NCBI GenBank assembly: GCA_030765065.1
Contig: CM060975.1
Span: 262,765,816 to 262,829,815, forward strand
Direction of reading: 5' to 3'
From: Deroplatys truncata
Lineage: Eukaryota > Arthropoda > Insecta > Mantodea > Mantidae
DNA: 64,000 nucleotides
The position numbers and the translations under genes were made by a program. The notes under the pieces are model-generated. The model searched no databases. It was not told where the DNA came from and worked only from the letters and a program-made list of their open reading frames with translations. Below are positions 4,471 through 52,766 of the stretch, piece by piece (position 1 is the stretch's first letter; each line of letters starts with the position of its first letter).

Positions 4471-4472
4471 TA

Positions 4473-17950: not shown

Positions 17951-18203
17951 TACTCTGCATGCCTTTTTGTTTGTTTTTGAATAAAAGTTCTAACCTGTAT
18001 TTTTTTCAATGTTAACTGATGCGTTCCGGGTTCGAATCCTGGTGAAGTTCTAGAAGCGATGTTCTCAGCTGTTTTGTTGTCCCACGTAGGTAGACTAGAA
18101 GTTCGCGTTGTAATTTTGTTCTGCTGTGCCCCTTTCCTCTGAAGATTCTTCGTCTGTTCGTTGTTTCCTAGTTCTCCGTTTGTGTCGTTCTTCCCTTCGA
18201 GCT

Positions 18204-18222: not shown

Positions 18223-19368
18223 TGCGGCGATCACCTCCTCATCCGTTGCTGTTAGGCTTACCTTGATGCTTCTCCCGTTGCTTCCAGAAGTTCTCAGTGG
18301 GTTGGTTCTCTTCAATTTATCCTCGGCTAGCTGCAGTAATTTTTCTTAAACTATATGGGAGCATGGACTTATCCTCGGTAAAGGAAAACGTAGATCTCGG
18401 GTGGTGATATAGGAAGACATAGACTTGCTTTGTTTATGAAAAGATGACACTGCCGTTTCTTTTTATTTAATTAACACTCGTAGTATACAAAACTGGTATT
18501 GCCGCTGTAAAATACTGTCCACCGCTGTTAAACTATGGCGTGGATATGGCACGAAATATAACTATTCTTATTGTCGCTTTCAGAGTAGCGGATCTTAGGT
18601 GTGTTGCTAAAACTATTTTGATTCCCTGTTTTGGCGCGATATCTCACATATCCTGCAGCATCTCTCCCTGACCACACATGACAAAAACTGCCGAATAAAA
18701 CGCAATGCTAAAATTCCATGATAAAACTGTTGACAATACTGTCTTTTTGGCGCGATATCTCACACATCCTGCAGCATCTCTCCCTGACCACACCTGACAT
18801 AAACTGTCCCGAATTTTCCCCAAACAGATCCATTTATAGTCTCAGGCTTCTGAGGCTGCTTCCTTTCCTATTGGTCCATTTTTAGCGCGACTCGACGCGT
18901 CTAACTATTTCGAATAAACTTTCAGGGATCTCATTGGTCCAAGTTTAATATAAATCGCGGCTTTTCCTACATTTACCGTTAGGTTGTCTGTCTCACTCAC
19001 TTGGTCACGGCGAATTATCAAATAATGGGACAAAGGCTCTACACCCTCGCTGTAGGAATAATAGCACTGCGACCGAAGAGAGGTAATAAAACTAGGTTTT
19101 CTGCCTTCGAAAGCACTATTCCTGTAGCTAAAACATTCCCTCGTGGACAGTATTTTAACATAGCGCTTAAATTATTTACATTAAACCATTTATAACTCTA
19201 CTAATATTAGTAACCTAGATAGATACATAACGTTAAATCACCCTTCTTAAAATATACAAGCAGTATGAGAAAAAGATATTTACATAATACGATTTAACAT
19301 CAATAAAAGTTAATTAATAAATTATCTGTAATTACAGTTCTTGGGCTCGGCCTAGAGTTGCCGTTTCA
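18223..19368 (-). repeat. Upstream (5') LTR of the gypsy-type element
   Basis: 1,146 bp, almost identical to 14,722-15,865. It should carry the promoter of the element. CCAAT-type sites (ATTGG on +) lie in both LTRs (15,374 and 15,432 in the other copy). A plus-strand TATAAAT (15,448-15,454 there) points the opposite way from the coding strand and is probably fortuitous or antisense. Confidence 0.92.
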
Positions 19369-26100: not shown

Positions 26101-26106
26101 ATCTAT

Positions 26107-28035
26107 TGATGCCTTCGCGTTCTCCTAGTACCCCTGGAATCCATTTACACCTTCACTTTCTCACAGTACTCCTGGAATCCATCGACGCCTTTACTTTCTC
26201 ACAGTACCCCTGGAATCCATCGATGCATTCACTTTCTCATAGTAGCCCTGGAATCCATTGATGCATTCACTTTCTCATAGTAGCCCTGGAATCCATCGAT
26301 GCATTCACTTTCTCATAGTACCCCTGGAATCCATTGATGCATTCACTTTCTCACAGTACCCCTGGAATCCATCGACGCCTTTACTTTATCACAGTACTCC
26401 TGGAATCCATCGACGCCTTTACTTTCTCACAGTACCCCTGGAATCTATCGACGCCTTCACTTCCTCATAGTAGCCCTGGAATCCATCGATGCATTCACTT
26501 TCTCATAGTAGCCCTGGAATCCATCGATGCATTCACTTTCTCATAGTAGCCCTGGAATCCATTGATGCATTCACTTTCTCATAGTAGCCCTGGAATCCAT
26601 CGATGCATTCACTTTCTCATAGTAGCCCTGGAATCCATTGATGCATTCACTTTCTCATAGTAGCCCTGGAATCCATCGATGCATTCACTTTCTCACAGTA
26701 GCCCTGGAATCCATCGATGCATTCACTTTCTCATAGTACCCCTGGAATCCATTGATGCATTCACTTTCTCACAGTACCCCTGGAATCCATCGACGCCTTT
26801 ACTTTATCACAGTACTCCTGGAATCCATCGACGCCTTTACTTTCTCACAGTACCCCTGGAATCCATCGACGCCTTTACTTTCTCACAGTACCCCTGGAAT
26901 CCATCGACGCCTTCACTTCCTCATAGTAGCCCTGGAATCCATCGATGCATTCACTTTCTCATAGTAGCCCTGGAATCCATCGATGCATTCACTTTCTCAT
27001 AGTAGCCCTGGAATCCATTGATGCATTCACTTTCTCATAGTAGCCCTGGAATCCATCGATGCATTCACTTTCTCATAGTAGCCCTGGAATCCATTGATGC
27101 ATTCACTTTCTCATAGTATCCCTGGAATCCATTGATGCATTCACTTTCTCGTAGTAGCCCTGGAATCCATCGACGCCTTTACTTTCTCACAGTACTCCTG
27201 AAATCCATTGACACCTTCACTTTCTCACAGTACTCCTGAAATCCATTGACACCTTCACTTTCTCACAGTACTCCTGAAATCCATTGACACCTTCACTTTC
27301 TCACAGTACTCCTGAAATCCATTGACACCTTCACTTTCTCACAGTACTCCTGAAATCCATCGACACCTTCACTTTCTCACAGTACTCCTGGAACCCATCG
27401 ATACCTTCGCATTCTCATAGTAGCCCTGGAATCTATCAATGCCTTCATGTTCGCATAGTACCCCTGGAATCCATTGACGCCATCACGTTCTTATAGTAGC
27501 TCTGGAATCCATTGACGCCATCACCTTCTTATAGTAGCTCTGGAATCCATTGCTGCCATCACGTTCTTAGTGTCCCAGGAATCCAGTGACGCCACCATGT
27601 CCTCATAATACCGCTGAACTGCACTGATAGCATCACGTTCTCATATAACTCCTGTACCCTAGCGATGCCATCACGTTATACCCATGGAAACCATCGGTGT
27701 CTTCATGTTGTCATTATACCCCTGGAATCCGATGAATCACATTATAGTAGCATCACGGAAAACCATTAATAGCTTAGCGTTCTCATAGTACCCCAGAAAG
27801 TCATCGATGCCACCACGTTATGTAGTATCCGTGGAAACCATCGATGCCTTCGTATTATCATTATACCCCTGGGGTCCAACGATGCATCACATTATAGTAG
27901 TACCCTGGAAACCATTAATACCTTCACTTTCTCATAGTACCCCTGAAATTCTTTGATACCATGTTATACATTACCTCCGGAAACCATCGATGCCTTCACG
28001 TTATCATTGTACTCTTGGAATTCATCGTGCTCCAT
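26107..28035. repeat. 38-bp minisatellite, about 50 units
   Basis: Tandem units of 38 bp, typical core CCCTGGAATCCATCGATGCA followed by TTCACTTTCTCATAGTAG. Units are uniform from about 26,140 to 27,400 and degenerate progressively towards 28,035. Variant units (C-G-A-C-G-C-C-T versus C-G-A-T-G-C-A-T types) recur in blocks: the order at about 26,258-26,470 is repeated at about 26,679-26,930, roughly 11 units apart, so multi-unit blocks were duplicated. Because 38 is not divisible by three, the open frames across it are by-products with a 114-bp period. Confidence 0.95.
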
Positions 28036-34872: not shown

Positions 34873-34878
34873 CTCGTA
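34873..34878. other. Left target-site duplication of the palindromic element (CTCGTA)
   Basis: CTCGTA here is repeated directly at 52,761-52,766, exactly at both outer boundaries of the palindrome. The sequences beyond are unrelated to each other. Confidence 0.8.
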
Positions 34879-34888
34879 AGTAGTAATA

Positions 34889-35037
34889 GTCCCGGATGAG
34901 CCAATTGTTTTAACGATAATCCTGCCGCTAGGGGCGCTAGTGTCGCTAGTGTCGCTGCGTGCGACGGCGGCGGCGGTAAGTTTGAAAAGCGCCCTGAGCG
35001 TTAGGATTATCGTTAAATCGGTTGGCTCATCCGGGAC
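34889..35037. repeat. Terminal hairpin module, left
   Basis: A 149-bp imperfect inverted repeat. The first 41 bases (from GTCCCGGATGAGCCAA through TTTAACGATAATCCT) are inverted at its right end with about five mismatches. The middle is GC-rich with GGGGCGCTAGTGTCGCTAGT and a CGGCGG run. It sits 10 bp from the tip of the giant element and could be a MITE captured at the tip or a structural terminus. No direct repeat flanks it. Confidence 0.85.
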
Positions 35038-35235
35038 GAGTTGAAAGAATTGAGGAAGTGACGTGGAGTGTTTTGATTGGTTCGTTAATTTGGGGTGGGA
35101 GATGGAGGAAGGGAGATGGAGGAGTATGGAGGTCGCGTGATGGAGAGGAGCTGGGTGGCGAGGTGTTGTGTGTGCGGAGGTCGGTACTGAAATGGGGGAA
35201 AAGATGGGTAGCGAGGGATAAAAAGTGTAACAGAA

Positions 35236-35345
35236 AGTGACGTGTGAAGTTGTGATTGGTGGGAATAAGAAGTGATTTTATTGGTGGAAAGGAGCAAATG
35301 AGAGTTGTTGATTGGTAAGAATAAGAGGGATTATGATTGGTGGAA
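35236..35345 (-). promoter_or_regulatory. CCAAT cluster with CRE-like site
   Basis: Four CCAAT boxes spaced 25, 31 and 25 bp, followed in minus reading by CACGTCACTTTC. Recurs in the next two units at about 36,311-36,420 and 37,437-37,545, and is mirrored in the right arm. NF-Y and CREB-type factors bind such sites in general; function here is inference. Confidence 0.5.
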
Positions 35346-35857
35346 AGAAAAAGGTGTGGGAGTGGGGTATGTTGGAGGTGATGGGAAAGGTGAGTGTTGC
35401 TAGCAGCAAGATTTGCAAAAGCCTGTCTTGAACTGATCAGCAATTTTTGAACGTCGGATGGTAGTTTTCTTGAGTGGATAGAGAGATGGGGGCGATATGA
35501 GATGCGGTGGCGAAAATGGGAACTAGACAAGGTTGTTGAGACAAGAGGTTTAAGGACGAGGAAATTTGGAGGTTAGTGGTGAACACGGCTGTCGCAAGAG
35601 GTGGGGGTAAGGAGACGCAGTGGTGAGAATGGGAACTAAAAGAAGATGGGGGTAGCAAGAGTTTTAGAAGAGTAGATTTTGAGGTTAAAATAGTGGGAAC
35701 TAAAAATGGCGGAGGGTCTGCGACAAGGAGATGCGGTGAGAACTAAACAAGATGGCGGTCGCAAGAGGAGGGTAAGGAGATTTGAGGTTACAGTACGAAA
35801 ACACGAAAGGATATATTCCTACGCCAAGCAGGTCCGAAAAATAATTATGCGTGTGGT

Positions 35858-35866
35858 ACTTACCTG
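35858..35866 (-). promoter_or_regulatory. Strong 5' splice-site match (CAG|GTAAGT)
   Basis: On the minus strand ACAGGTAAGT matches the donor consensus perfectly. The homologous unit has the same at 36,924-36,932, and both are mirrored in the right arm (about 50,708 and 51,774). It lies about 100 bp downstream of a short frame, as in a first exon. Confidence 0.4.
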
Positions 35867-35957
35867 TTACCGGTGTGGATGCGTCACCAAAAGCGCGGCA
35901 CGCGAGGCGGAAAAATAAAAGCAAACTGTTTTTGAAAATGCTTAACCAGCTTTAAGA

Positions 35958-36188
35958 TCAACCAACATCACTACGCACTGATATACCTAGGTTTTTAAAG
36001 CGGTACAGACACCCTTTGCAGAGGCGTAATTTAACTATACCAAAAACCTGGTACTGGACCATCGTGATGGTCGCTAGCGTACGTAGGAGCAGGGTTCTCA
36101 TAGCCGGTCGAAAGCGGTCAAAAACAAGTACGACGTAGGTGTTGACAGTAGCTGCTGTCGAGTCAACGGTCGAGGTGTGAATAAACAA
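35958..36188 (-). CDS. Short ORF of the promoter-like unit (76 residues)
   Basis: Ends FDRFRPAMRTLLLRTLATITM...NLGISVRSDVG. The same ending terminates a 143-residue frame in the next unit (37,024-37,455), and both are mirrored in the right arm (51,451-51,681 and 50,184-50,615, + strand). Persistence of the frame follows from DNA identity and is no proof of coding. No family recognised. Confidence 0.2.
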   Translation of the reverse strand: MFIHTSTVDSTAATVNTYVVLVFDRFRPAMRTLLLRTLATITMVQYQVFGIVKLRLCKGCLYRFKNLGISVRSDVG

Positions 36189-37605
36189 GATCTGTTCTCG
36201 CCGGCAATTTGGTTCGGAGATGTGAGCAGCGGCGAGGTGTTGTCTGTGCGGAGGTCGGGACTGAAAGAGGGAAAAGATGGGGAGCGAGGGATAAATAGTG
36301 TAACAGAAAGTGACGTGTGAAGTTGTGATTGGTGGGAATAAGAAGTGATTTTATTGGTGGAAAGGAGCAAATGAAAGTTGTTGATTGGTAAGAATAAGAG
36401 AGGTTATGATTGGTGGAAAGAAAAAGGAGTGGGGTATGTTGGAGGTGATGGGAAAGGTAAGTTTTGCTAGCAACAAGATTTGCAAAAGCCTGTCGTGAAC
36501 TGATCAGCAATTTTTTGAACGTTGGATGGTAGTTTTCTTGAGTGGATAGAGAGATGGGGCGATATGAGATGCGGTGGCGAAAATGGGAACTAAACAAGGT
36601 GGTTGAGACAAGAGGTTTAAGGACGAGGAAATTTGGAGGTTAGTGGTGAACATGGCGGTCGCAAGAGGTGGGGGTAAGGAGACGCGGTGGTGAGAATGGG
36701 AACTAAAAGAAGATGGCGGTAGCAAGAGGTTAGAAGAGTAGATTTTGAGGTTAAAATAGCGGGAACTAAAAATGGCGGAGGGTCTGCGACAAGGAGATGC
36801 GGTGAGAACTAAACAAGATGGCGGACGCAAGAGGTGGGTAAGGAGGTTTGAGGTTACAGTACCAAAACACGAAAGGATATATTCCTACGCCAAGCAGGTC
36901 CGAAAAATAATTATGCGTGTGTTACTTACCTGTTACCGGTGTGGATGCGTCACCAAAAGCGCGGCACGCGAGACGGAAAAATAAAAGCAAACTGTTTTTG
37001 AAAATGCTTAACCAGCTTTAAGATCAACCAACATCACTACGCACTGATATACCTAGGTTTTTAAAGCGGTACAGACACCCTTTGCAGAGGCGTAATTTAA
37101 CTATACCAAAAACCTGGTACTGGACCATCGTGATGGTCGCTAGCGTACGTAGCAGCAGGGTTCTCATAGCCGGTCGAAAGCGGTCAAAAACGTGTACGAC
37201 GTAGGTGTTGGCAGTAGCTGCTGCCGAGGCAACCGTCGAGGTGCGAATGAACGAGATCTGTTCTTGCAGGCAATCTGGTTGAGAGATGAGAGGCGCGGTG
37301 GTAAAAATGTGAACTAAATAAGATGGCGGAGGCACGAAGTTGAGGTTAAGGAGCGGCGAGGTGTTGACTGTGCGGCGGTTGGGGTCTGAAAGAGGGGGAA
37401 AGATGGCGAACGAGGGATAAAAAGTATAACAGAAAGTGACGTGTGAAGTTGTCATTGGTGGGAATAAGAAGTGATGTTATTGGTGGAAAGGAACAAATGA
37501 AAGTTGCTGATTGGCGAGAATAAGAGAGCTTATGATTGGTGGAAAGAAAAAAAGGTGTGGGAGTGGGGTATGTTGGAGGTGATGGAAAAGGCAAGTTTTG
37601 CTACC

Positions 37606-37974
37606 AACAACATTTGCAAAAGCCTATCCAGAACTCATCAGCAATTTTAAATAACTAGTGTTTCGGGGGTTTTCTCTGGTTGGTAGACGAATGCAAGCTG
37701 TTTCTACCATACTTATATTATTCGTCTTTTTCCTTTTTTTTTTTTTAAAATGACTAGTTTTTTTTTTTTTTGGGAGTTTTCTGCGGATGGTAAACAAATG
37801 CAAGCTCTTTCTGCTTTTTCATAGGTTTTCCCTGGTTGGTAGGCGTTTTCTGTACTGGTTGACGAAGGCGTTTCTAATTTTGGAGGTTTTCTCAGGTTTT
37901 TAGCGGTTGTCCCTGCCCGGTAGGCAAATGATGAAGTTTTACCTTGTCGGCGCACGGATACTAGGCACGTACTG
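37606..37974. repeat. Degenerate short repeats around GGTTTTCTCTGGTTGGTAG
   Basis: Several imperfect copies of a 50-60-bp motif (GGTTTTCYCTGGTTGGTAG, then CAAATGCAAGCT) with T-runs at about 37,734 and 37,758. Related copies recur at 38,260-38,345. Mirrored in the right arm at about 49,665-50,040. Confidence 0.6.
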
Positions 37975-38005
<31 letters not shown>

Positions 38006-41000
38006 GAGAGAGACAGACAGACACACAGACAGGCACACACACACGGACATGTTTCCAAAAATGCTTTTTTTTTTTTTTTTTTTTTGATTCAGGAGGTCTC
38101 AAAACGTGTATTTCCGGTGAAATCTCGGTATCGAATTTTTGGGCGGAATGCAATACTTCCCCTACTTACTATACGTAGTAGAGAAAGTAAAAAAGTATTG
38201 AAAAATTTAAGGAAATAACAAGCAATATCTCAAAAGTGTACTATCTTGTTTTCAAGGGTTTTCCAGATCGGTAAGCGTTAGAATACTCTTAGAGCTTTTT
38301 TCAGGTTTTTTAGCGGTTGTCCCTGGCCGGTAGGCAAATGATAAAGTTTTTCTATAACGTCGTCGTTTTGGCTTGTGGCGCACGGTTCCTAGGCACGTAC
38401 TCGCGCGCGCGCACACACACACACACACACACTAAAATAGTAGCGTATAAAAAAAACTGATTTGTTACACTCACATGACTTTCTCTACTCTTGTACAATC
38501 TAATTGGTAGCTTTTAAGCGATAGTCAAATATTTTAACGCTGGTTGCTATGTGGCGAATTCCATTCTGTTTGCATGTTCAGGACATAAAAAAAATGAATA
38601 AACGAATTTGAGAAAAAGTATAAGTATTGGAAAATTTAAGGAAATAACAAGCAATATCTCGAAAACGGTTCACTCAACAAAAGAAACGTATATGACATAA
38701 GTTGTGTATTTTAACGCGATCTACATTTTTTGTGTAGTAAAATTTTGTCTATCTCTTATGGTTTACCAGTTATGCAAAAAAGTCGTTCACAATGAAGAAT
38801 ATTTTTAGAGACATTCCCAGAAAATTCGAGATATACATTTTATTTGACATGACAATATCTTAAACATATGATGTTTTAATCAAAATCGTTAGAGCCGTTT
38901 TTGAGAAAATTAAAATTTTCGAAAAATGTTCCATGTAAAGGGTAGTCTGGGGTGGGGGGATTTTCTTGAAAACCTTCGTGTCGCATCTCTGGAAGATACT
39001 GAACCTAAATACCAAGTTTGGTGTTTATCCGACTGTTCGTTTTTGAGTTATGCTGTTCACAGACACACAGACACACAGACACACAGACAGACACACACAC
39101 GGACATGTTTCCAAAAATGCTTTTTTTTTTTTGGATTCAGAGATTCTCAAAACATGTATTTCCAGTGAAATCTCGGTAACGAATTTTTGGGTGGAATGCA
39201 ATACTTCCCCTACTTACTATACGTAGTAGAGAAAGTAAAAATGAATAACGCATTTGAGAAAAAGTATAAGTATTGGAAAATTTAAGGAAATAACAAGCAA
39301 TATCTCGAAAATGGTTCACTCAACTAAAAAAAAATGTATATGACATAAATTGTGTATTTTAACGCGATCTACATTTTTTGTGTAGTAAAATTTTGGCTAT
39401 CTCTTATGGTTTACCAGTTATGCATACTGAACCTAAATACCAAGTTTGGTGTTTATCCGACTGTTCGTTTTTGAGTTATGCTGTTCACAGACACACAGAC
39501 GCACAGACAGACAGACACACAGACACACAGACACACAGACAGACACACACACGGACATGTTTCCAAAAATGCTTTTTTTTTCTGGATTCAGTGATTCTCA
39601 AAACATGTATTTCCAGTGAAATCTCGGTATCGAATTTTTGGGTGGAATGCAATACTTCCCCTACTTACTATACGTAGTAGAGAAAGTAAAAATGAATAAC
39701 GCATTTGAGAAAAGGTATAAGTATTGGAAAATTTAAAGGAAATAACAAGCAATATCTCGAAAAACGGTTCACTCAACAAAATAAATGTATATGGCATAAG
39801 TTGTGTATTTTAACGCGATCTACATTTTTTGTGTAGCAAACTTTTGTCTATCTCTTACGGTTTATCAGTTATGAAAAAGTCGTTCACAATGAAGAATTCT
39901 TTTGGAGACATTCCCAGAAAATTCGAGATATACATTTCATTTCTCTCGACATTATCTTAAATATATGATATTTTCATCAAAATCGTTAGAGCCATTTTTT
40001 AATACAAAGAGAACGGGATTTCACAAGTGAAACAGTACTGTGATAACGATACCACTGAAACAAAAAAAAAAAATCTGATGTGTAACACTCACATGACTTT
40101 CTCAACTCTTGTACAAAGTATTTTTACAAACGCTTATTCCCCATCTAGTTCATGTTAATCGAGATAAACATTTGCAAAATCTATTTTATTGCTAATTTTG
40201 TTGTATAAAAAAAAATCTGATGTGTAACACTCACATGACGTTCTCTACTCTTGTACAAAGTATTTTTACAAACGCTTATGCTCCATCTAGTTCATGTTAA
40301 TCGAGATAAACATTTGCAAACTCTATTTTATTGCTAATTTTCTTGTAGATGTAGGGGAAAATATATTTACAAGGGGAATATAGAAAAACAGTAGCCTTTA
40401 AGCACATACATATCTCTTAATAGCTGGTTGCTATGTGCAACACCATTCTTTTTGCCACAGATTAATACTGTTTGCATATCAAAGACAAAAAAAAATGAAT
40501 AACGAAGTCCCATTTGAGAAAATAAATATTGGAAAATTAACAAACAATATCTCGAAAACGGTTCACTCAACAACAAAAATGTATATTACATAAGATGTGT
40601 ATTTTAACGCGATCTACATTTTTGTGTAGTAAAATTTTGTCTATCTCTTACGGTTTTTCAGTTATGAAAAAGACGTTCACAATGAAGAATACTTTTGGAG
40701 ACATTCCCAGAAAATTCGAGATATACATTTCATTTCTCACGACATTATATTAAACATACGATATTTTTCATCAAAATCGTTAGAGCCATTTTTTTTAATA
40801 CAAAGAGAACGGGATTTCACAAGTGAAACAGTACTGTGATAACGATACCAACAAAACTAATTATTATTCACCCACTGAAACACATAAAAAAAATCTGATG
40901 TGTAACACTCACATGACTTTTCTCATCTCTTGTACAAAGTATTTTTACAAACGCTTATTCCCCATCTAGTTCATGTTAATCGAGATAAACATTTGCAAAC

Positions 41001-41310
41001 TCTGTTTTATTGCTAATTTTGTTGTAGATGTAGGGAAAATATATTTACAAGGGGAATATAGAAAAACAGTAGCCTTTAAGCACATACATATCTCTTAATA
41101 GCTGGTTGCTATGTGCAGTACCATTCTTTTTGCCACAGATTAATACTCTTTGCATATCAAAGACAAAAAAAAAATGAATAACGAATTCCCATTTGAGAAA
41201 ATAACTATTGGAAAATTTAAGCAAATAACAAGCAATATCTCGAAAACGGTTCACTCAACAATAAAGATGTATATGACATAAGTTGTGTATTTTAACGCGA
41301 TCTACATACT
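37975..41310 (-). repeat. Family A array in the left arm
   Basis: At least three or four partial copies of family A in minus orientation, each with the block TCTCAAAACRTGTATTTCC, GTGAAATCTCGGTAWCGAAT, TACTATACGTAGTAGAGAAAG or the inner landmarks CGATCTACATTTTTTGTG and GACATTCCCAGAAAATTCG. CA/CAGA tracts occur at 37,979-38,040, 38,409-38,432, 39,060-39,100 and 39,487-39,552. Copies are much closer to each other than to single copies elsewhere, so they amplified inside the element. Confidence 0.85.
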
Positions 41311-41768
41311 TTCGTACTCACCTATAAGATATAGAGGGTAGAGGTCGTACGAACGTAGCACTTTGAGAATTTATATTCAACAGTTGGTGTTACTCCTTAG
41401 AAAGGAAGTATCTGCTGATTTTTATTTAATTCTTTACATTTTACATAACACGTATGCACTGGCACAACACAAAAGCACTACACACGATACTCAGTTTTAA
41501 TATTTGCACTAATAACATCAGGAATAACTGAAGTCTGCAAACAGTCATTTCCCATGTGCAGCCTTACGTACAGAGAACGTGTGTGGCTGATCTATGTGTA
41601 AAAAGAGCCTGAGAGCGGATGTACGTCAGCGGTAAAATCTTTTAAATGCATTTTTATTGGCGATGGTAGAAATCGTGCAGTGGTGGATCGTGAAAATTCA
41701 TATAAATGGATGTATCACCTCATAATAAGCCTCTATATACCAAGAATATTGAGTTTTTAAAAAGTCAG
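41311..41768. other. Single-copy segment of the left arm
   Basis: Unique within the arm. On the minus strand, ATAGGTGAGTACG at its left end is another good splice-donor match (mirrored near 46,328). No ORF of note. Confidence 0.4.
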
Positions 41769-43250
41769 CAACTGTACCTGTGTTTCTATACGTGAACGTC
41801 AGATGGCAGCTTCGATACGTGTCCACGTAGACCTTAGTGCTAGGCAACTGTACCTCTGTTTCTATACGTGAACGGCAGATTGCAGCTTCGATACGTGTCC
41901 ACGGAGACCTTAGTGCTAGGCAACTGTACCTCTGTTTCTATACGTGAACGGCAGATTGCAGCTTCGATACGTGTCCACGGAGACCTTAGTGCTAGGCAAC
42001 TGCACCTCTGTTTCTATACGTGAACGGCAGATTGCAGCTTCGATACGTGTCCACGGAGACCTTAGCGCTAGGCAACTGCACCTCTGTTTCTATACGTGAA
42101 CGGCAGATTGCAGCTTCGATACGTGTCCACGGAGACCTTAGTGCTAGGCAACTGTACCTCTGTTTCTATACGTGAACGGCAGATTGCAGCTTCGATACGT
42201 GTCCACGGAGACCTTAGTGCTAGGCAACTGTACCTCTGTTTCTATACGTGAACGGCAGATTGCAGCTTCGATACGTGTCCACGGAGACCTTAGTGCTAGG
42301 CAACTGCACCTCTGTTTCTATACGTGAACAGCAGATTGCAGCTTCGATACGTGTCCACGGAGACCTTAGTGCTAGGCAACTGTACCTCTGTTTCTATACG
42401 TGAACGGGAGATTGCAGCTTCGATACGTGTCCACGGAGACCTTAGTGCTAGGCAACTGCACCTCTGTTTCTATACGTGAACGTCAGATTGCAGCTTCGAT
42501 ACGTGTCCACGGAGACCTTAGTGCTAGGCAACTGCACCTCTGTTTCTATACGTGAACGGCAGATTGCAGCTTCGATACGTATCCACGGGGACCTTAGTGC
42601 TAGGGAACTGCACCTCTGTTTCTATACGTGAACGGCAGATTGCAGCTTCAATACGTGTCCACGGAGACCTTAGTGCTAGGCAGCTGTACCTCTGTTTCTA
42701 TACGTGAACGGCAGATTGCAGCTTCGATACGTGTCCACGGAGATCTTAGTGCTAGGCAGCTATACCTGTTTCTATACGTCAACGGCAGATTGCAGCTTCG
42801 ATACGTGTTCACGGAGACCTTAGTGCTAGGCAACTGTACCTGTGTTTCTATACGTGTCCACGGAGACAGTGCTAGACAACTGTACCTCTGTTTCTATACG
42901 TGAACGGCAGATTGCAGCTTCAATACGTGTCCACGGAGACCTTAGTGCTAGTGCTAGGCAACTATACCTCTGTTTCTATACGTGAACGGCAGATTGCAGG
43001 TTCGATACGTGTCCACGGAGATCTTAGTGCTAGGCAACTATACCTGTTTCTATACGTGAACGGCAGATTGCAGCTTCGATACGTGTCCACGGAGACCTTA
43101 GTGCTAGGCAACTGTACCTGTGTTTCTATACGTGAACGTCAGATGGCAGCTTCGATACGTGTCCACGGAGACCTTAGTGTTAGGCAACTGTACCTCTGTT
43201 TCTATACGTGAACGGCAGATTGCAGCTTCGATACGTGTCCACGGAGACCT
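41769..43250. repeat. 76-bp minisatellite, left arm (about 19-20 units)
   Basis: Units contain CTGTTTCTATACGTGAACGG, CAGATTGCAGCTTCGATACG, TGTCCACGGAGACCTTAGTG and CTAGGCAACTG. Some units are shortened. Mirrored at 44,400-45,880 with matching unit order, so the arms did not diverge by unequal exchange after duplication. 76 is not divisible by three; frames across it are by-products. Confidence 0.95.
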
Positions 43251-43315
43251 TTCGCTTCAGGTGACAAAATAACACTAGGCACTTGTGTGCCGTGGTGTAA
43301 GCCGCAATCACGGTA

Positions 43316-43564
43316 TTGGTAGCGTGGATCTCCTTGGGGCTCTCCTCGGAGTTACCTCAACACCACGTACATGACCTGGTTCGTCACGGGTACGCAGGTC
43401 TGCACTACCACTTCCTCGGCGTTGAGCAGGCCCAGGAGGCGATCGTACCGGTACACCAGCTAGCACGTGGACATGTTATCGCGCTGTGGTGTTGCGTGTG
43501 CGAGGTATGGAAACTCAAGGACGCAAAACATGCACGACCGAGGGTTAAAAAGCAGAACAAGTAG
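43316..43564 (+). CDS. GC-rich short ORF near the palindrome loop
   Basis: 82 residues if a TTG start is allowed (no ATG; a stop lies a few codons upstream). Segment LHYHFLGVEQAQEAIVPVHQLARGHVIALWCCVCEVW has G/C-rich third positions, unlike neighbouring DNA, and reads like part of a real globular protein. No family recognised. The exact mirror is at 44,085-44,333 on the minus strand. It may be a remnant of a captured or ancestral gene of the element. Confidence 0.35.
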   Translation: MVAWISLGLSSELPQHHVHDLVRHGYAGLHYHFLGVEQAQEAIVPVHQLARGHVIALWCCVCEVWKLKDAKHARPRVKKQNK

Positions 43565-43740
43565 TGACGTGGAGCGTTGTGATTGGTGTAAATAAGACGA
43601 TCTCTGATAGGTGGACAAATTGAAATAACGTGATGTGATAGGCGAAAATAAAATCAAAGGTGATTGGATGAAAAATGACGAGAAGGAATTAGCGGTGAAT
43701 TTGTGAACTAAGATGGCGAAGATTTTTTTTTTTAAAAAAA
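43560..43740. promoter_or_regulatory. Loop-proximal promoter-like module
   Basis: Repeats the vocabulary of the outer units: GTGACGTGGAGCG (CRE-like), GTGATTGG (CCAAT inverted) twice, and AAGATGGCG (YY1-like) at about 43,710. Mirrored at about 43,905-44,090. Suggests the arm is bounded on both sides by related regulatory DNA. Confidence 0.4.
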
Positions 43741-43809
43741 GGATAATATAAGTACGGCAACTGTAACGGTTTACGGCAAACGCGCGCCGCGCAATGCGTC
43801 ACGCCGGGC

Positions 43810-43838
43810 ATCTTGCTCAATATGATTTTTGTTTTATT
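43810..43838. other. Loop of the giant palindrome
   Basis: A 29-bp AT-rich non-palindromic spacer between GCGTCACGCCGGGC and GCCCGGGCGTGACGC. The innermost arms are extremely CpG-rich (ACGGCAAACGCGCGCCGCGC) and differ by one C. Confidence 0.9.
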
Positions 43839-46329
43839 GCCCGGGCGTGACGCATTGCGCGGCGCGCGTTTGCCGTAAACCGTTACAGTTGCCGTACTTA
43901 TATTATCCTTTTTTTAAAAAAAAAAATCTTCGCCATCTTAGTTCACAAATTCACCGCTAATTCCTTCTCGTCATTTTTCATCCAATCACCTTTGATTTTA
44001 TTTTCGCCTATCACATCACGTTATTTCAATTTGTCCACCTATCAGAGATCGTCTTATTTACACCAATCACAACGCTCCACGTCACTACTTGTTCTGCTTT
44101 TTAACCCTCGGTCGTGCATGTTTTGCGTCCTTGAGTTTCCATACCTCGCACACGCAACACCACAGCGCGATAACATGTCCACGTGCTAGCTGGTGTACCG
44201 GTACGATCGCCTCCTGGGCCTGCTCAACGCCGAGGAAGTGGTAGTGCAGACCTGCGTACCCGTGACGAACCAGGTCATGTACGTGGTGTTGAGGTAACTC
44301 CGAGGAGAGCCCCAAGGAGATCCACGCTACCAATACCGTGATTGCGGCTTACACCACGGCACACAAGTGCCTAGTGTTATTTTGTCACCTGAAGCGAAAG
44401 GTCTCCGTGGACACGTATCGAAGCTGCAATCTGCCGTTCACGTATAGAAACAGAGGTACAGTTGCCTAACACTAAGGTCTCCGTGGACACGTATCGAAGC
44501 TGCCATCTGACGTTCACGTATAGAAACACAGGTACAGTTGCCTAGCACTAAGGTCTCCGTGGACACGTATCGAAGCTGCAATCTGCCGTTCACGTATAGA
44601 AACAGGTATAGTTGCCTAGCACTAAGATCTCCGTGGACACGTATCGAACCTGCAATCTGCCGTTCACGTATAGAAACAGAGGTATAGTTGCCTAGCACTA
44701 GCACTAAGGTCTCCGTGGACACGTATTGAAGCTGCAATCTGCCGTTCACGTATAGAAACAGAGGTACAGTTGTCTAGCACTGTCTCCGTGGACACGTATA
44801 GAAACACAGGTACAGTTGCCTAGCACTAAGGTCTCCGTGAACACGTATCGAAGCTGCAATCTGCCGTTGACGTATAGAAACAGGTATAGCTGCCTAGCAC
44901 TAAGATCTCCGTGGACACGTATCGAAGCTGCAATCTGCCGTTCACGTATAGAAACAGAGGTACAGCTGCCTAGCACTAAGGTCTCCGTGGACACGTATTG
45001 AAGCTGCAATCTGCCGTTCACGTATAGAAACAGAGGTGCAGTTCCCTAGCACTAAGGTCCCCGTGGATACGTATCGAAGCTGCAATCTGCCGTTCACGTA
45101 TAGAAACAGAGGTGCAGTTGCCTAGCACTAAGGTCTCCGTGGACACGTATCGAAGCTGCAATCTGACGTTCACGTATAGAAACAGAGGTGCAGTTGCCTA
45201 GCACTAAGGTCTCCGTGGACACGTATCGAAGCTGCAATCTCCCGTTCACGTATAGAAACAGAGGTACAGTTGCCTAGCACTAAGGTCTCCGTGGACACGT
45301 ATCGAAGCTGCAATCTGCTGTTCACGTATAGAAACAGAGGTGCAGTTGCCTAGCACTAAGGTCTCCGTGGACACGTATCGAAGCTGCAATCTGCCGTTCA
45401 CGTATAGAAACAGAGGTACAGTTGCCTAGCACTAAGGTCTCCGTGGACACGTATCGAAGCTGCAATCTGCCGTTCACGTATAGAAACAGAGGTACAGTTG
45501 CCTAGCACTAAGGTCTCCGTGGACACGTATCGAAGCTGCAATCTGCCGTTCACGTATAGAAACAGAGGTGCAGTTGCCTAGCGCTAAGGTCTCCGTGGAC
45601 ACGTATCGAAGCTGCAATCTGCCGTTCACGTATAGAAACAGAGGTGCAGTTGCCTAGCACTAAGGTCTCCGTGGACACGTATCGAAGCTGCAATCTGCCG
45701 TTCACGTATAGAAACAGAGGTACAGTTGCCTAGCACTAAGGTCTCCGTGGACACGTATCGAAGCTGCAATCTGCCGTTCACGTATAGAAACAGAGGTACA
45801 GTTGCCTAGCACTAAGGTCTCCGTGGACACGTATCGAAGCTGCCATCTGACGTTCACGTATAGAAACACAGGTACAGTTGCTGACTTTTTAAAAACTCAA
45901 TATTCTTGGTATATAGAGGCTTATTATGAGGTGATACATCCATTTATATGAATTTTCACGATCCACCACTGCACGATTTCTACCATCGCCAATAAAAATG
46001 CATTTAAAAGATTTTACCGCTGACGTACATCCGCTCTCAGGCTCTTTTTACACATAGATCAGCCACACACGTTCTCTGTACGTAAGGCTGCACATGGGAA
46101 ATGACTGTTTGCAGACTTCAGTTATTCCTGATGTTATTAGTGCAAATATTAAAACTGAGTATCGTGTGTAGTGCTTTTGTGTTGTGCCAGTGCATACGTG
46201 TTATGTAAAATGTAAAGAATTAAATAAAAATCAGCAGATACTTCCTTTCTAAGGAGTAACACCAACTGTTGAATATAAATTCTCAAAGTGCTACGTTCGT
46301 ACGACCTCTACCCTCTATATCTTATAGGT

Positions 46330-49300
46330 GAGTACGAAAGTATGTAGATCGCGTTAAAATACACAACTTATGTCATATACATCTTTATTGTTGAGTGAAC
46401 CGTTTTCGAGATATTGCTTGTTATTTGCTTAAATTTTCCAATAGTTATTTTCTCAAATGGGAATTCGTTATTCATTTTTTTTTTGTCTTTGATATGCAAA
46501 GAGTATTAATCTGTGGCAAAAAGAATGGTACTGCACATAGCAACCAGCTATTAAGAGATATGTATGTGCTTAAAGGCTACTGTTTTTCTATATTCCCCTT
46601 GTAAATATATTTTCCCTACATCTACAACAAAATTAGCAATAAAACAGAGTTTGCAAATGTTTATCTCGATTAACATGAACTAGATGGGGAATAAGCGTTT
46701 GTAAAAATACTTTGTACAAGAGATGAGAAAAGTCATGTGAGTGTTACACATCAGATTTTTTTTATGTGTTTCAGTGGGTGAATAATAATTAGTTTTGTTG
46801 GTATCGTTATCACAGTACTGTTTCACTTGTGAAATCCCGTTCTCTTTGTATTAAAAAAAATGGCTCTAACGATTTTGATGAAAAATATCGTATGTTTAAT
46901 ATAATGTCGTGAGAAATGAAATGTATATCTCGAATTTTCTGGGAATGTCTCCAAAAGTATTCTTCATTGTGAACGTCTTTTTCATAACTGAAAAACCGTA
47001 AGAGATAGACAAAATTTTACTACACAAAAAATGTAGATCGCGTTAAAATACACATCTTATGTAATATACATTTTTGTTGTTGAGTGAACCGTTTTCGAGA
47101 TATTGTTTGTTAATTTTCCAATATTTATTTTCTCAAATGGGACTTCGTTATTCATTTTTTTTTGTCTTTGATATGCAAACAGTATTAATCTGTGGCAAAA
47201 AGAATGGTGTTGCACATAGCAACCAGCTATTAAGAGATATGTATGTGCTTAAAGGCTACTGTTTTTCTATATTCCCCTTGTAAATATATTTTCCCCTACA
47301 TCTACAAGAAAATTAGCAATAAAATAGAGTTTGCAAATGTTTATCTCGATTAACATGAACTAGATGGAGCATAAGCGTTTGTAAAAATACTTTGTACAAG
47401 AGTAGAGAACGTCATGTGAGTGTTACACATCAGATTTTTTTTTATACAACAAAATTAGCAATAAAATAGATTTTGCAAATGTTTATCTCGATTAACATGA
47501 ACTAGATGGGGAATAAGCGTTTGTAAAAATACTTTGTACAAGAGTTGAGAAAGTCATGTGAGTGTTACACATCAGATTTTTTTTTTTTGTTTCAGTGGTA
47601 TCGTTATCACAGTACTGTTTCACTTGTGAAATCCCGTTCTCTTTGTATTAAAAAATGGCTCTAACGATTTTGATGAAAATATCATATATTTAAGATAATG
47701 TCGAGAGAAATGAAATGTATATCTCGAATTTTCTGGGAATGTCTCCAAAAGAATTCTTCATTGTGAACGACTTTTTCATAACTGATAAACCGTAAGAGAT
47801 AGACAAAAGTTTGCTACACAAAAAATGTAGATCGCGTTAAAATACACAACTTATGCCATATACATTTATTTTGTTGAGTGAACCGTTTTTCGAGATATTG
47901 CTTGTTATTTCCTTTAAATTTTCCAATACTTATACTTTTTCTCAAATGCGTTATTCATTTTTACTTTCTCTACTACGTATAGTAAGTAGGGGAAGTATTG
48001 CATTCCACCCAAAAATTCGATACCGAGATTTCACTGGAAATACATGTTTTGAGAATCACTGAATCCAGAAAAAAAAAGCATTTTTGGAAACATGTCCGTG
48101 TGTGTGTCTGTCTGTGTGTCTGTGTGTCTGTCTGTCTGTGCGTCTGTGTGTCTGTGAACAGCATAACTCAAAAACGAACAGTCGGATAAACACCAAACTT
48201 GGTATTTAGGTTCAGTATGCATAACTGGTAAACCATAAGAGATAGCCAAAATTTTACTACACAAAAAATGTAGATCGCGTTAAAATACACAATTTATGTC
48301 ATATACATTTTTTTTTAGTTGAGTGAACCATTTTCGAGATATTGCTTGTTATTTCCTTAAATTTTCCAATACTTATACTTTTTCTCAAATGCGTTATTCA
48401 TTTTTACTTTCTCTACTACGTATAGTAAGTAGGGGAAGTATTGCATTCCACCCAAAAATTCGTTACCGAGATTTCACTGGAAATACATGTTTTGAGAATC
48501 TCTGAATCCAAAAAAAAAAAAGCATTTTTGGAAACATGTCCGTGTGTGTGTCTGTCTGTGTGTCTGTGTGTCTGTGAACAGCATAACTCAAAAACGAACA
48601 GTCGGATAAACACCAAACTTGGTATTTAGGTTCAGTATCTTCCAGAGATGCGACACGAAGGTTTTCAAGAAAATCCCCCCACCCCAGACTACCCTTTACA
48701 TGGTACATTTTTCGAAAATTTTAATTTTCTCAAAAACGGCTCTAACGATTTTGATTAAAACATCATATGTTTAAGATATTGTCATGTCAAATAAAATGTA
48801 TATCTCGAATTTTCTGGGAATGTCTCCAAAAATATTCTTCATTGTGAACGACTTTTTTGCATAACTGGTAAACCATAAGAGATAGACAAAATTTTACTAC
48901 ACAAAAAATGTAGATCGCGTTAAAATACACAACTTATGTCATATACGTTTCTTTTGTTGAGTGAACCGTTTTCGAGATATTGCTTGTTATTTCCTTAAAT
49001 TTTCCAATACTTATACTTTTTCTCAAATTCGTTTATTCATTTTTTTTATGTCCTGAACATGCAAACAGAATGGAATTCGCCACATAGCAACCAGCGTTAA
49101 AATATTTGACTATCGCTTAAAAGCTACCAATTAGATTGTACAAGAGTAGAGAAAGTCATGTGAGTGTAACAAATCAGTTTTTTTTATACGCTACTATTTT
49201 AGTGTGTGTGTGTGTGTGTGCGCGCGCGCGAGTACGTGCCTAGGAACCGTGCGCCACAAGCCAAAACGACGACGTTATAGAAAAACTTTATCATTTGCCT

Positions 49301-49624
49301 ACCGGCCAGGGACAACCGCTAAAAAACCTGAAAAAAGCTCTAAGAGTATTCTAACGCTTACCGATCTGGAAAACCCTTGAAAACAAGATAGTACACTTTT
49401 GAGATATTGCTTGTTATTTCCTTAAATTTTTCAATACTTTTTTACTTTCTCTACTACGTATAGTAAGTAGGGGAAGTATTGCATTCCGCCCAAAAATTCG
49501 ATACCGAGATTTCACCGGAAATACACGTTTTGAGACCTCCTGAATCAAAAAAAAAAAAAAAAAAAAAAGCATTTTTGGAAACATGTCCGTGTGTGTGTGC
49601 CTGTCTGTGTGTCTGTCTGTCTCT

Positions 49625-49660
<36 letters not shown>

Positions 49661-49665
49661 CAGTA
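46330..49665 (+). repeat. Family A array in the right arm
   Basis: Mirror of 37,975-41,310, here in + orientation, which allows the family order to be read: CTTTCTCTACTACGTATAGT, then GAAGTATTGCATTCCACCC, the TGTGTGTCTGTCTG tract, AACTCAAAAACGAACAGTCG, ACCAAACTTGGTATTTAGG, TGCGACACGAAGG, CCCCCCACCCC, GGCTCTAACGATTTTGAT, CGAATTTTCTGGGAATG, GTAGATCGCGTTAAAATACA, TTTTCGAGATATTGC, and finally GTAGAGAAAGTCATGTGAG. TG-tract lengths differ slightly from the left arm. Confidence 0.9.
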
Positions 49666-50039
49666 CGTGCCTAGTATCCGTGCGCCGACAAGGTAAAACT
49701 TCATCATTTGCCTACCGGGCAGGGACAACCGCTAAAAACCTGAGAAAACCTCCAAAATTAGAAACGCCTTCGTCAACCAGTACAGAAAACGCCTACCAAC
49801 CAGGGAAAACCTATGAAAAAGCAGAAAGAGCTTGCATTTGTTTACCATCCGCAGAAAACTCCCAAAAAAAAAAAAAAAAAACTAGTCATTTTAAAAAAAA
49901 AAAAAGGAAAAAGACGAATAATATAAGTATGGTAGAAACAGCTTGCATTCGTCTACCAACCAGAGAAAACCCCCGAAACACTAGTTATTTAAAATTGCTG
50001 ATGAGTTCTGGATAGGCTTTTGCAAATGTTGTTGGTAGC

Positions 50040-52601
50040 AAAACTTGCCTTTTCCATCACCTCCAACATACCCCACTCCCACACCTTTTTTTCTTTCCAC
50101 CAATCATAAGCTCTCTTATTCTCGCCAATCAGCAACTTTCATTTGTTCCTTTCCACCAATAACATCACTTCTTATTCCCACCAATGACAACTTCACACGT
50201 CACTTTCTGTTATACTTTTTATCCCTCGTTCGCCATCTTTCCCCCTCTTTCAGACCCCAACCGCCGCACAGTCAACACCTCGCCGCTCCTTAACCTCAAC
50301 TTCGTGCCTCCGCCATCTTATTTAGTTCACATTTTTACCACCGCGCCTCTCATCTCTCAACCAGATTGCCTGCAAGAACAGATCTCGTTCATTCGCACCT
50401 CGACGGTTGCCTCGGCAGCAGCTACTGCCAACACCTACGTCGTACACGTTTTTGACCGCTTTCGACCGGCTATGAGAACCCTGCTGCTACGTACGCTAGC
50501 GACCATCACGATGGTCCAGTACCAGGTTTTTGGTATAGTTAAATTACGCCTCTGCAAAGGGTGTCTGTACCGCTTTAAAAACCTAGGTATATCAGTGCGT
50601 AGTGATGTTGGTTGATCTTAAAGCTGGTTAAGCATTTTCAAAAACAGTTTGCTTTTATTTTTCCGTCTCGCGTGCCGCGCTTTTGGTGACGCATCCACAC
50701 CGGTAACAGGTAAGTAACACACGCATAATTATTTTTCGGACCTGCTTGGCGTAGGAATATATCCTTTCGTGTTTTGGTACTGTAACCTCAAACCTCCTTA
50801 CCCACCTCTTGCGTCCGCCATCTTGTTTAGTTCTCACCGCATCTCCTTGTCGCAGACCCTCCGCCATTTTTAGTTCCCGCTATTTTAACCTCAAAATCTA
50901 CTCTTCTAACCTCTTGCTACCGCCATCTTCTTTTAGTTCCCATTCTCACCACCGCGTCTCCTTACCCCCACCTCTTGCGACCGCCATGTTCACCACTAAC
51001 CTCCAAATTTCCTCGTCCTTAAACCTCTTGTCTCAACCACCTTGTTTAGTTCCCATTTTCGCCACCGCATCTCATATCGCCCCATCTCTCTATCCACTCA
51101 AGAAAACTACCATCCAACGTTCAAAAAATTGCTGATCAGTTCACGACAGGCTTTTGCAAATCTTGTTGCTAGCAAAACTTACCTTTCCCATCACCTCCAA
51201 CATACCCCACTCCTTTTTCTTTCCACCAATCATAACCTCTCTTATTCTTACCAATCAACAACTTTCATTTGCTCCTTTCCACCAATAAAATCACTTCTTA
51301 TTCCCACCAATCACAACTTCACACGTCACTTTCTGTTACACTATTTATCCCTCGCTCCCCATCTTTTCCCTCTTTCAGTCCCGACCTCCGCACAGACAAC
51401 ACCTCGCCGCTGCTCACATCTCCGAACCAAATTGCCGGCGAGAACAGATCTTGTTTATTCACACCTCGACCGTTGACTCGACAGCAGCTACTGTCAACAC
51501 CTACGTCGTACTTGTTTTTGACCGCTTTCGACCGGCTATGAGAACCCTGCTCCTACGTACGCTAGCGACCATCACGATGGTCCAGTACCAGGTTTTTGGT
51601 ATAGTTAAATTACGCCTCTGCAAAGGGTGTCTGTACCGCTTTAAAAACCTAGGTATATCAGTGCGTAGTGATGTTGGTTGATCTTAAAGCTGGTTAAGCA
51701 TTTTCAAAAACAGTTTGCTTTTATTTTTCCGCCTCGCGTGCCGCGCTTTTGGTGACGCATCCACACCGGTAACAGGTAAGTACCACACGCATAATTATTT
51801 TTCGGACCTGCTTGGCGTAGGAATATATCCTTTCGTGTTTTCGTACTGTAACCTCAAATCTCCTTACCCTCCTCTTGCGACCGCCATCTTGTTTAGTTCT
51901 CACCGCATCTCCTTGTCGCAGACCCTCCGCCATTTTTAGTTCCCACTATTTTAACCTCAAAATCTACTCTTCTAAAACTCTTGCTACCCCCATCTTCTTT
52001 TAGTTCCCATTCTCACCACTGCGTCTCCTTACCCCCACCTCTTGCGACAGCCGTGTTCACCACTAACCTCCAAATTTCCTCGTCCTTAAACCTCTTGTCT
52101 CAACAACCTTGTCTAGTTCCCATTTTCGCCACCGCATCTCATATCGCCCCCATCTCTCTATCCACTCAAGAAAACTACCATCCGACGTTCAAAAATTGCT
52201 GATCAGTTCAAGACAGGCTTTTGCAAATCTTGCTGCTAGCAAAACTCACCTTTCCCATCACCTCCAACATACCCCACTCCCACACCTTTTTCTTTCCACC
52301 AATCATAATCCCTCTTATTCTTACCAATCAACAACTCTCATTTGCTCCTTTCCACCAATAAAATCACTTCTTATTCCCACCAATCACAACTTCACACGTC
52401 ACTTTCTGTTACACTTTTTATCCCTCGCTACCCATCTTTTCCCCCATTTCAGTACCGACCTCCGCACACACAACACCTCGCCACCCAGCTCCTCTCCATC
52501 ACGCGACCTCCATACTCCTCCATCTCCCTTCCTCCATCTCCCACCCCAAATTAACGAACCAATCAAAACACTCCACGTCACTTCCTCAATTCTTTCAACT
52601 C
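50040..52601 (+). repeat. Right promoter-like tandem repeat
   Basis: Units at 50,040-51,170 and 51,171-52,237 plus a truncated one at 52,238-52,601, reading outward (rightward). CCACCAATCA-type CCAAT clusters, CACGTCACTTTCTG, CCGCCATCTTGTTTAG motifs and the ACAGGTAAGT donor are in direct orientation here. Counterpart of 35,038-37,605. Confidence 0.8.
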
Positions 52602-52750
52602 GTCCCGGATGAGCCAACCGATTTAACGATAATCCTAACGCTCAGGGCGCTTTTCAAACTTACCGCCGCCGCCGTCGCACGCAGCGACACTAGCGACACT
52701 AGCGCCCCTAGCGGCAGGATTATCGTTAAAACAATTGGCTCATCCGGGAC
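52602..52750. repeat. Terminal hairpin module, right
   Basis: Mirror of 34,889-35,037, also 149 bp and 10 bp from the tip. Confidence 0.85.
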
Positions 52751-52760
52751 TATTACTACT

Positions 52761-52766
52761 CTCGTA
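52761..52766. other. Right target-site duplication (CTCGTA)
   Basis: Direct copy of 34,873-34,878, immediately outside the right tip. Confidence 0.8.

What the first reader, a model, noticed from the sequence alone, without database searches (positions are those of the whole stretch)
34879..52760. A 17.9-kb near-perfect palindrome that is itself a mobile element
Seen directly: 8.9-kb arms that are reverse complements, a 29-bp loop, and a 6-bp direct repeat (CTCGTA) touching both outer tips while the outside flanks differ. A fold-back sequencing or assembly error would mirror the flanks as well and would not create a direct repeat there. So the palindrome appears to have been inserted as one unit. 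Arms this long that fill almost the whole element are far beyond ordinary terminal inverted repeats. No coding capacity for movement is visible, so it would depend on another element.
Basis: partly seen in the sequence, partly recalled or inferred. Interest (0 to 1): 0.96.

Follow-up and report, generated by a model that had tools for sequence, protein, structure and literature searches.

The report
Palindromic non-coding Polinton parasite
An 18-kb mirror-image stretch of DNA is one of hundreds of copies of a gene-less mobile element that appears to ride on virus-like Polinton transposons, and its two halves look as if they are copied from one another as it spreads.

Summary
Window 34879-52760 is a 17,882-bp palindrome (arms 8,927 and 8,918 bp, 99.64% identical; 37-bp centre) between two CTCGTA repeats. 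It went in as a unit: the same repeat without the insertion, with one CTCGTA, was read base by base in two other places and matched in 40 of 40 scored copies. 20 of 21 elements with these tips have different perfect 6-bp duplications. The centre has 833 matches in this 4.29-Gb genome.

What it is: a gene-less derivative of a Polinton/Maverick. Its tips, AGTAGT...ACTACT, are the commonest vertebrate Maverick end motif. A relative with the same tips carries integrase, PolB and protease genes. The outer ~6.6 kb of each arm corresponds to that relative's right flank: right end - centre - right end.

How it works: relatives' integrase and PolB probably mobilise it (inferred). The arms are homogenised as it spreads. 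In a tree of 20 arms, the two arms of a copy are sisters in 9 of 10 copies; array changes private to a copy occur in both its arms, while most private point changes are in one arm. The likeliest cause is fold-back copying at the central hairpin; gene conversion is the main rival.

Not shown: movement in action, helper dependence, any extrachromosomal form.

The parts
34873..34878 (.). left target-site duplication CTCGTA
   Evidence: single CTCGTA in empty-site copies
34879..43805 (+). left arm (8,927 bp), starting AGTAGTAATAGT
34879..35037 (.). 159-bp terminal segment shared with both ends of the gene-bearing Polinton relative; bases 11-159 fold into one long hairpin leaving AGTAGTAATA unpaired
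   Evidence: relative's own TIR, 159 bp, 96.9%; -57.4 kcal/mol, z -12.8
34879..41513 (.). part of left arm whose matching pieces (arm 1-6635) lie in the same order and orientation as in the non-coding right flank of two left/right-ended relatives; the palindrome has extra internal repeats
41768..43251 (.). 76-bp tandem array of left arm
43273..43486 (-). ~213-bp segment 75-76% identical to the presumed PolB region of two relatives, inverted relative to the outer arm
   Evidence: assignment to PolB is by position only
43779..43870 (.). G+C-rich central hairpin
   Evidence: -49.3 kcal/mol, z -11.1
43806..43842 (.). 37-bp asymmetric centre (loop); identical in 8 of 9 readable copies, two changes in the ninth (E10); 833 genome matches with up to 3 mismatches
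43843..52760 (-). right arm (8,918 bp), reverse complement of the left arm
44162..44375 (+). mirror copy of the inverted PolB-region segment (coordinates approximate, by mirroring)
44398..45881 (.). 76-bp tandem array of right arm; same unit order as the left array except the first unit
52602..52760 (.). mirror 159-bp terminal segment ending ACTATTACTACT (coordinates by mirroring)
52761..52766 (.). right target-site duplication CTCGTA

Best explanation
The palindrome is a non-autonomous Polinton/Maverick derivative made of two copies of a Polinton's right end, head to head around a G+C-rich hairpin (right end - centre - right end). SHOWN: it inserts as a unit with a 6-bp target duplication, at hundreds of places; a gene-bearing relative has the same tips; the outer arm corresponds to that relative's right flank; arms are homogenised along the lineages that spread, while most variants private to one copy are in one arm. 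INFERRED: a Polinton integrase inserts it, recognising the AGTAGT tips; a protein-primed PolB copies it from the same tips while it is outside the chromosome; when copying runs from a tip through the central hairpin, the new strand folds back there and copies its own arm, so both arms of the next insertion come from one arm. That would keep the palindrome near-perfect, keep the short asymmetric centre, and let array changes appear in both arms at once.
For: Insertion unit: empty sites, 40 of 40 scored copies for each of two insertions, two of each read base by base; TSDs 20 of 21. Polinton identity: AGTAGT//ACTACT is the commonest vertebrate Maverick end motif and 6-bp duplications mark intact ones (PMC8097293, passages, section 7). 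A 27.6-kb relative with a TSD and a 159-bp TIR has integrase core (1.2e-14) plus chromodomain (6.1e-7), DNA_pol_B_2 (9.9e-13) and a protease ORF matching ASFV S273R (9.5e-6). A second left/right-ended element (18,978 bp) is 97-98% identical to it over its right 9.6 kb, PolB stretch included, though four of its own ORFs had no Pfam match. Right-end homodimer: of 44 tip pairs on C1, by exact end markers, 21 are right/right, 10 left/right, 2 right/unclear, 3 left/unclear, 8 unclear, 0 left/left; 19 of 19 pairs holding an exact centre are right/right (from the listings). Homogenisation: sister arms in 9 of 10 copies. Variants carried by more than one copy: 23 in both arms, 4 in one arm, 5 mixed; private: 22 in both arms, 74 in one; Fisher p 1.1e-6. 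Array changes found in one copy only but in both its arms: W, E04, E05; a ~1,067-bp gain in both arms of E04. 9 of 19 loop-bearing C1 pairs have arms equal within 15 bp, although these nine arm lengths run from 8,546 to 9,289 (20,000 shuffles: mean 1.0, maximum 6).
Against: No movement, extrachromosomal DNA or helper dependence was observed. E09 is an exception: its arms are not sisters; it looks like one E06-like arm and one that shares a variant with E04/E07, so a cycle can pass without homogenisation. E06 and E09 share three one-arm variants. Large changes in one arm only occur in four copies (E03, E05, E06, E10), which I read as post-insertion. In 800-bp segments of five further copies the sibling arm was nearest in two, tied in one and not nearest in two; in the last two most differences sit at microsatellite edges. 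The inner PolB-region segment is inverted relative to the outer arm, so the first palindrome did not arise by one simple fold-back of a gene-bearing element. 17 of 36 exact centres examined on C1 lie outside tip pairs, so 833 centre matches need not all be whole palindromes.
Confidence: 0.62

Rival explanations
1. Same element (non-autonomous right-end Polinton palindrome moved by gene-bearing relatives), but the arms are kept alike by ordinary arm-to-arm gene conversion in the chromosome, as in sex-chromosome palindromes, and are copied unchanged when the element moves.
For: Arm-to-arm conversion of chromosomal palindromes is well known (recalled). Shared variants are older on average than private ones, so slow conversion would also make them more symmetric. 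22 private variants are in both arms, most in E07 (6) and E10 (5); they may be conversions or may predate the insertion.
Against: Private variants in one arm / both arms per copy: E04 14/0, E09 11/0, E07 10/6, E05 9/3, E06 8/2, E01 7/2, E08 6/1, W 4/2, E03 4/1, E10 1/5. Of 14 variants carried by all of E04, E06, E07 and E09, 13 are in both arms of all four (one of them also in one arm of E05) and one is in both arms of three and one arm of E07. Three of ten copies carry an array change at the same place in both arms.
Confidence: 0.28
2. A classical FoldBack / MULE / P-type (Galileo-like) DNA transposon with very long repeat-rich terminal inverted repeats, unrelated to Polintons.
For: Long inverted repeats with internal tandem arrays resemble FoldBack and Galileo elements (abstract starts in the listing, and recall).
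Against: 6-bp duplications and AGTAGT ends fit Mavericks; the same tips and right flank are shared with an element bearing Polinton-type integrase and PolB.
Confidence: 0.03
3. Assembly or sequencing fold-back artefact, or unrelated local inverted duplication.
For: Long palindromes are a typical artefact of long-read libraries (recalled). Reads were not available.
Against: Direct, not mirrored, target duplications at 20 of 21 elements; exact empty sites; arms differ by copy-specific variants; many copies on many chromosomes.
Confidence: 0.02
4. Each palindrome formed anew and independently from a gene-bearing Polinton.
For: Right-end duplication is what independent fold-backs of a linear genome would give.
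Against: The 37-bp centre is identical in 8 of 9 readable copies and has 833 near matches, so the centre has one origin; only the arms are renewed.
Confidence: 0.03

Closest known systems
Polinton / Maverick self-synthesising transposons
   Same: (AGT)2//(ACT)2 end motif, 6-bp target duplications, length in the 15-20 kb class (PMC8097293 passages and section 7; PMC5718144 passages); same tips and right flank as a gene-bearing member in this genome
   Different: No genes; arms fill almost the whole element, against TIRs of 46-1,447 bp in vertebrate Mavericks; two right ends and no left end
Snapback defective-interfering genomes of adeno-associated virus (PMC8235507, abstract and passages) and symmetric defective adenovirus genomes (recalled)
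   Same: Self-complementary molecules holding one moiety of the parent; template switching was proposed for non-unit-length AAV genomes
   Different: Those are particles in virus populations; here the form is fixed in chromosomes at hundreds of places, with one common centre. Interference with the parent was not tested
FoldBack, Galileo and other long-TIR elements (listing, and recall)
   Same: Very long inverted repeats with internal repeats
   Different: Different ends, target duplication and source family; no transposase of those families was seen linked to these tips
Sex-chromosome palindromes with arm-to-arm gene conversion (recalled)
   Same: Arms within one copy more alike than between copies
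   Different: Those are static chromosomal duplications; here homogenisation seems tied to spreading copies and one-arm variants persist

Membership tests
Polinton/Maverick | 6-bp target-site duplication | tested here: met
   20 of 21 elements; also the 27.6-kb and 5.9-kb relatives; empty sites
Polinton/Maverick | end motif (AGT)2//(ACT)2 or (AG)3//(CT)3 | tested here: met
   AGTAGT...ACTACT against PMC8097293 section 7
Polinton/Maverick | retroviral-type integrase gene | tested here: not met
   None seen in the palindrome (four ORFs by Pfam, one by homology). Present in the 27.6-kb relative: rve 1.2e-14 and Chromo 6.1e-7
Polinton/Maverick | protein-primed PolB gene | tested here: not met
   Only a ~213-bp inverted segment matching the presumed PolB region. 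Relative: DNA_pol_B_2 9.9e-13
Polinton/Maverick | capsid, ATPase and protease genes | tested here: not met
   None seen in the palindrome. In the relative, protease supported (9.5e-6); capsid and ATPase assignments inconclusive
Polinton/Maverick | TIR of tens to about 1,400 bp | tested here: not met
   Arms 8.9 kb; the relative has 159 bp
Non-autonomous derivative of a Polinton | shares tips and flank with a gene-bearing Polinton of the same genome, lacks its genes | tested here: met
Non-autonomous derivative of a Polinton | mobilised in trans by the gene-bearing element | not testable with these tools
   Needs experiment or population data
Snapback/defective-interfering genome | one end of the parent duplicated as a self-complementary molecule | tested here: met
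   right/right 21 of 44 pairs, left/left 0 of 44 by exact markers, 13 of 44 with one or both ends unclassified
Snapback/defective-interfering genome | interferes with or is packaged by the parent | not testable with these tools
   No particle or expression data
FoldBack/MULE | 8-10 bp target duplication (recalled) | tested here: not met
   6 bp

The most novel reading that the evidence does not exclude
The palindrome is a satellite replicon of a virus-like Polinton: it exists outside the chromosome as a linear, self-complementary molecule, is copied by the Polinton's protein-primed polymerase, and is rebuilt from a single arm by fold-back at its central hairpin in nearly every round before being re-inserted by the Polinton's integrase. 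Its length (19 loop-bearing C1 pairs: mean 17.7 kb, SD 0.6; ten left/right-ended pairs: median 19.8 kb) may be held near the parent's by packaging. The genome would then be a fossil record of Polinton replication intermediates.
Probability: 0.42. Interest if true: 0.9.

Novelty: new variant of a known kind. Interest (0 to 1): 0.8.

Why it matters
Polintons are thought to copy themselves by protein-primed, adenovirus-like replication, but as far as I recall this rests mainly on gene content. A family of hundreds of mirror-image derivatives whose arms are homogenised as they spread offers indirect evidence about that replication step, left in the genome and testable by counting variants. It also shows that an 18-kb near-perfect palindrome, a structure usually held to be unstable (recalled), can be a successful mobile element, and it gives each insertion its own clock: the differences between its two arms. 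My searches of the open-access library (judged from the listed titles and abstract starts only, and one search listed 12 of 8,533) listed no palindromic or non-autonomous Polinton derivative; most subscription papers are not in that library.

Tried and rejected
Artefact: rejected on direct TSDs and empty sites. FoldBack/MULE: rejected on ends, TSD and the gene-bearing relative. Independent formation of each palindrome: rejected on the shared centre. Simple one-step fold-back of a gene-bearing Polinton as the first origin: weakened by the inverted PolB-region segment; the origin of the centre stays open. A protein search with an arm ORF found nothing. The tip pattern was not found in the viral contigs (that tool may leave out records of this genome). 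Rfam and tRNA scans of the window were empty. The first symmetric/asymmetric count had a bug that left out the window copy; the first rewrite crashed; one search replaces both. E02 was left out of the arm comparison because its right tip is damaged and it has no TSD; 927 bp in the middle of E05 were not fetched, so its centre was not read. E01-E10 were chosen among the copies closest to the window copy; the ten are the first ten tip pairs on C1, taken in order.
Full report
OBSERVATION. The palindrome is at the stated coordinates. A comparison without gaps fails after about 2.9 kb because of small indels; with gaps the arms are 99.64% identical over 8,941 columns, with 5 mismatches and 27 gap columns. 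CTCGTA abuts AGTAGTAATAGT on the left and ACTATTACTACT on the right.

GENOME. The window lies in an unnamed 4.29-Gb genome in 818 contigs. I did not identify the species. The first 1,622 bp of the element gave 40 (near-)full-length matches among the 40 scored of 2,629 first-look candidates, many as inverted pairs about 14-20 kb apart. A 24-base tip pattern with up to one mismatch occurs 1,847 + 1,830 times, control 0 + 0. The first 100 places, all on C1, form 44 convergent pairs (5.9-27.6 kb, median 17,966 bp) and 12 unpaired tips. The 37-bp centre with up to three mismatches occurs 412 + 421 times, control 0 + 0. Of 36 exact centres examined on C1 (39 are listed there), 19 lie in tip pairs and 17 do not, so 833 is not a count of whole palindromes.

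MOBILITY. Ten further elements near the top of the first search were fetched: nine have perfect, different 6-bp duplications; the tenth, E02, has a damaged right tip and none. In the first ten pairs on C1, taken in order, ten of ten have perfect, different 6-bp duplications; at least three of these have one left and one right end. With the window copy this is 20 of 21. Joining the flanks of E09 with one copy of the duplication matched 40 of 40 scored copies (of 1,860 candidates) at 95-96%; the same for the window copy matched 40 of 40 (of 777) at 98%. Two of each were fetched: each reads through the junction with a single CTCGTA or TACAAT. Both insertions thus interrupt dispersed repeats whose other copies show the empty site.

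FAMILY. The longest of the 44 pairs (27.6 kb) has the same tips, its own 6-bp duplication CTCGCC and a 159-bp terminal inverted repeat at 96.9%. Its ORFs match an integrase core with chromodomain and DNA_pol_B_2, and a protease ORF matches African swine fever virus S273R at 9.5e-6. Capsid and ATPase genes are my guess from ORF order and have no convincing library match. The integrase is 48-57% identical to the 120 proteins listed of 6,062, two of them named 'transposon-derived protein F54H12.3'. A second left/right-ended element (C1:14994612-15013589, 18,978 bp) is 97-98% identical to the first over its right 9.6 kb, except for a stretch that only the first has; four of its ORFs had no Pfam match. 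Other left/right-ended elements were classed by end markers alone, and their genes were not read. The genome has 152 DNA_pol_B_2 matches from 76 scored of 11,882 candidates, many in open frames of about 1,260-1,280 aa; I did not tie these to the same tips. A study of vertebrate Mavericks gives 5'-(AGT)2//(ACT)2-3' as the commonest end motif, with 6-bp duplications, TIRs of 46-1,447 bp and sizes of 12.7-24.6 kb (PMC8097293; passages, section 7). Tips and duplications here fit; the 8.9-kb arms do not.

RIGHT END TWICE. Beyond the 159-bp TIR, the arm matches the right end of the 27.6-kb element; its left end gives only one further short match of about 50 bp. In two left/right-ended elements the pieces matching arm 1-6635 lie in the same order and orientation as in the right flank, at about 95% in the outer 3 kb, less and more patchily further in. 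With up to three mismatches a right-end pattern has 2,068 matches and a left-end pattern 991, controls 0. By exact matches the 44 C1 pairs are 21 right/right, 10 left/right, 2 right/unclear, 3 left/unclear, 8 unclear and 0 left/left; 19 of 19 pairs holding an exact centre are right/right. The near-centre segment at 43273-43486 matches the presumed PolB region in inverted orientation, which I cannot explain.

ARMS ARE HOMOGENISED. I aligned the outer ~6.9 kb (7.9 kb in E04) of both arms of ten copies and, after masking gaps and simple repeats, used 6,258 columns. The sibling arm is nearest or tied for 18 of 20 arms, strictly nearest for 15. Variants carried by more than one copy: 23 in both arms of every carrier, 4 in one arm, 5 mixed. 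Private variants: 22 in both arms, 74 in one (Fisher p 1.1e-6; sites are not fully independent). A maximum-likelihood tree puts the two arms of a copy together in 9 of 10 copies, support 52-100 where given; E09 is the exception. The 76-bp arrays agree: W, E04 and E05 each carry an array change seen in no other copy but in both of its arms, while E03 and E06 have large array changes in one arm only. E04 has a ~1,067-bp gain in both arms. In 19 loop-bearing C1 pairs, 9 have arms equal within 15 bp; 20,000 shuffles reached at most 6. Against this, in 800-bp segments of five more copies the sibling was nearest in two, tied in one and not nearest in two, in the last two mostly through microsatellite edges.

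MECHANISM. Variants shared between copies are mostly in both arms; variants private to a copy are mostly in one. This fits homogenisation in the spreading lineage rather than steadily in resident copies. A protein-primed polymerase that starts at a tip, runs through the central hairpin and folds back would do this. Snapback genomes of adeno-associated virus are a known parallel (PMC8235507, abstract and passages); symmetric defective adenovirus genomes are recalled. Gene conversion remains possible. Arm differences of 1-17 per 6,258 columns would mean about 28,000-470,000 generations at a recalled rate of 2.9e-9; this is only a scale.

VERDICT. A real, recent, multi-copy mobile palindrome; a new variant of a known kind (non-autonomous Polinton), with an unusual way of keeping its symmetry.

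Noticed in passing
window 14722-15865 and 18223-19368: 1,146-bp direct repeats, 99.7% identical, in the layout of the two LTRs of a young LTR retrotransposon; the ORF between them (16892-17989) covers tandemly repeated DNA and has no Pfam match.
   Followed up: no
window 26101-28027: About 51 copies of a 38-bp tandem repeat.
   Followed up: no
window 1795-2313 and 23039-23482: Tc1/mariner-type transposase fragments (HTH_Tnp_Tc3_2).
   Followed up: partly
L032 (C1:233586282-233592204): A 5.9-kb relative with the same tips and a 6-bp duplication GGCGGC shares the central hairpin region but does not look like a full palindrome; it may be a step towards, or away from, the palindrome.
   Followed up: partly
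E09 (L025, L026): A palindrome whose arms are not sisters: one arm groups with E06, the other shares a variant with E04/E07, as if two parents had been joined.
   Followed up: partly
window 43273-43486 and mirror: PolB-region segment inverted relative to the outer arm: unexplained origin of the centre.
   Followed up: partly
window 38.0-41.2 kb against flanks near 0.6-0.9, 6.6-6.9, 19.6-20.0, 55.3-56.5, 60.1-61.5 and 63.5-64.0 kb: The arms share dispersed repeats with several places outside the element (matches over 300 bp are 70-77% identical).
   Followed up: no
L030 from about 6636 to L031 about 5556: The 27.6-kb relative has a stretch that its 18,978-bp sister lacks, with a zinc-knuckle ORF at L031:2863-4272: probably a nested retroelement that explains its extra length.
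   Followed up: partly
window 34889-35037: The 159-bp terminal segment is itself a long hairpin (z -12.8) leaving AGTAGTAATA single-stranded; the segment is present at both ends of the gene-bearing relative.
   Followed up: partly
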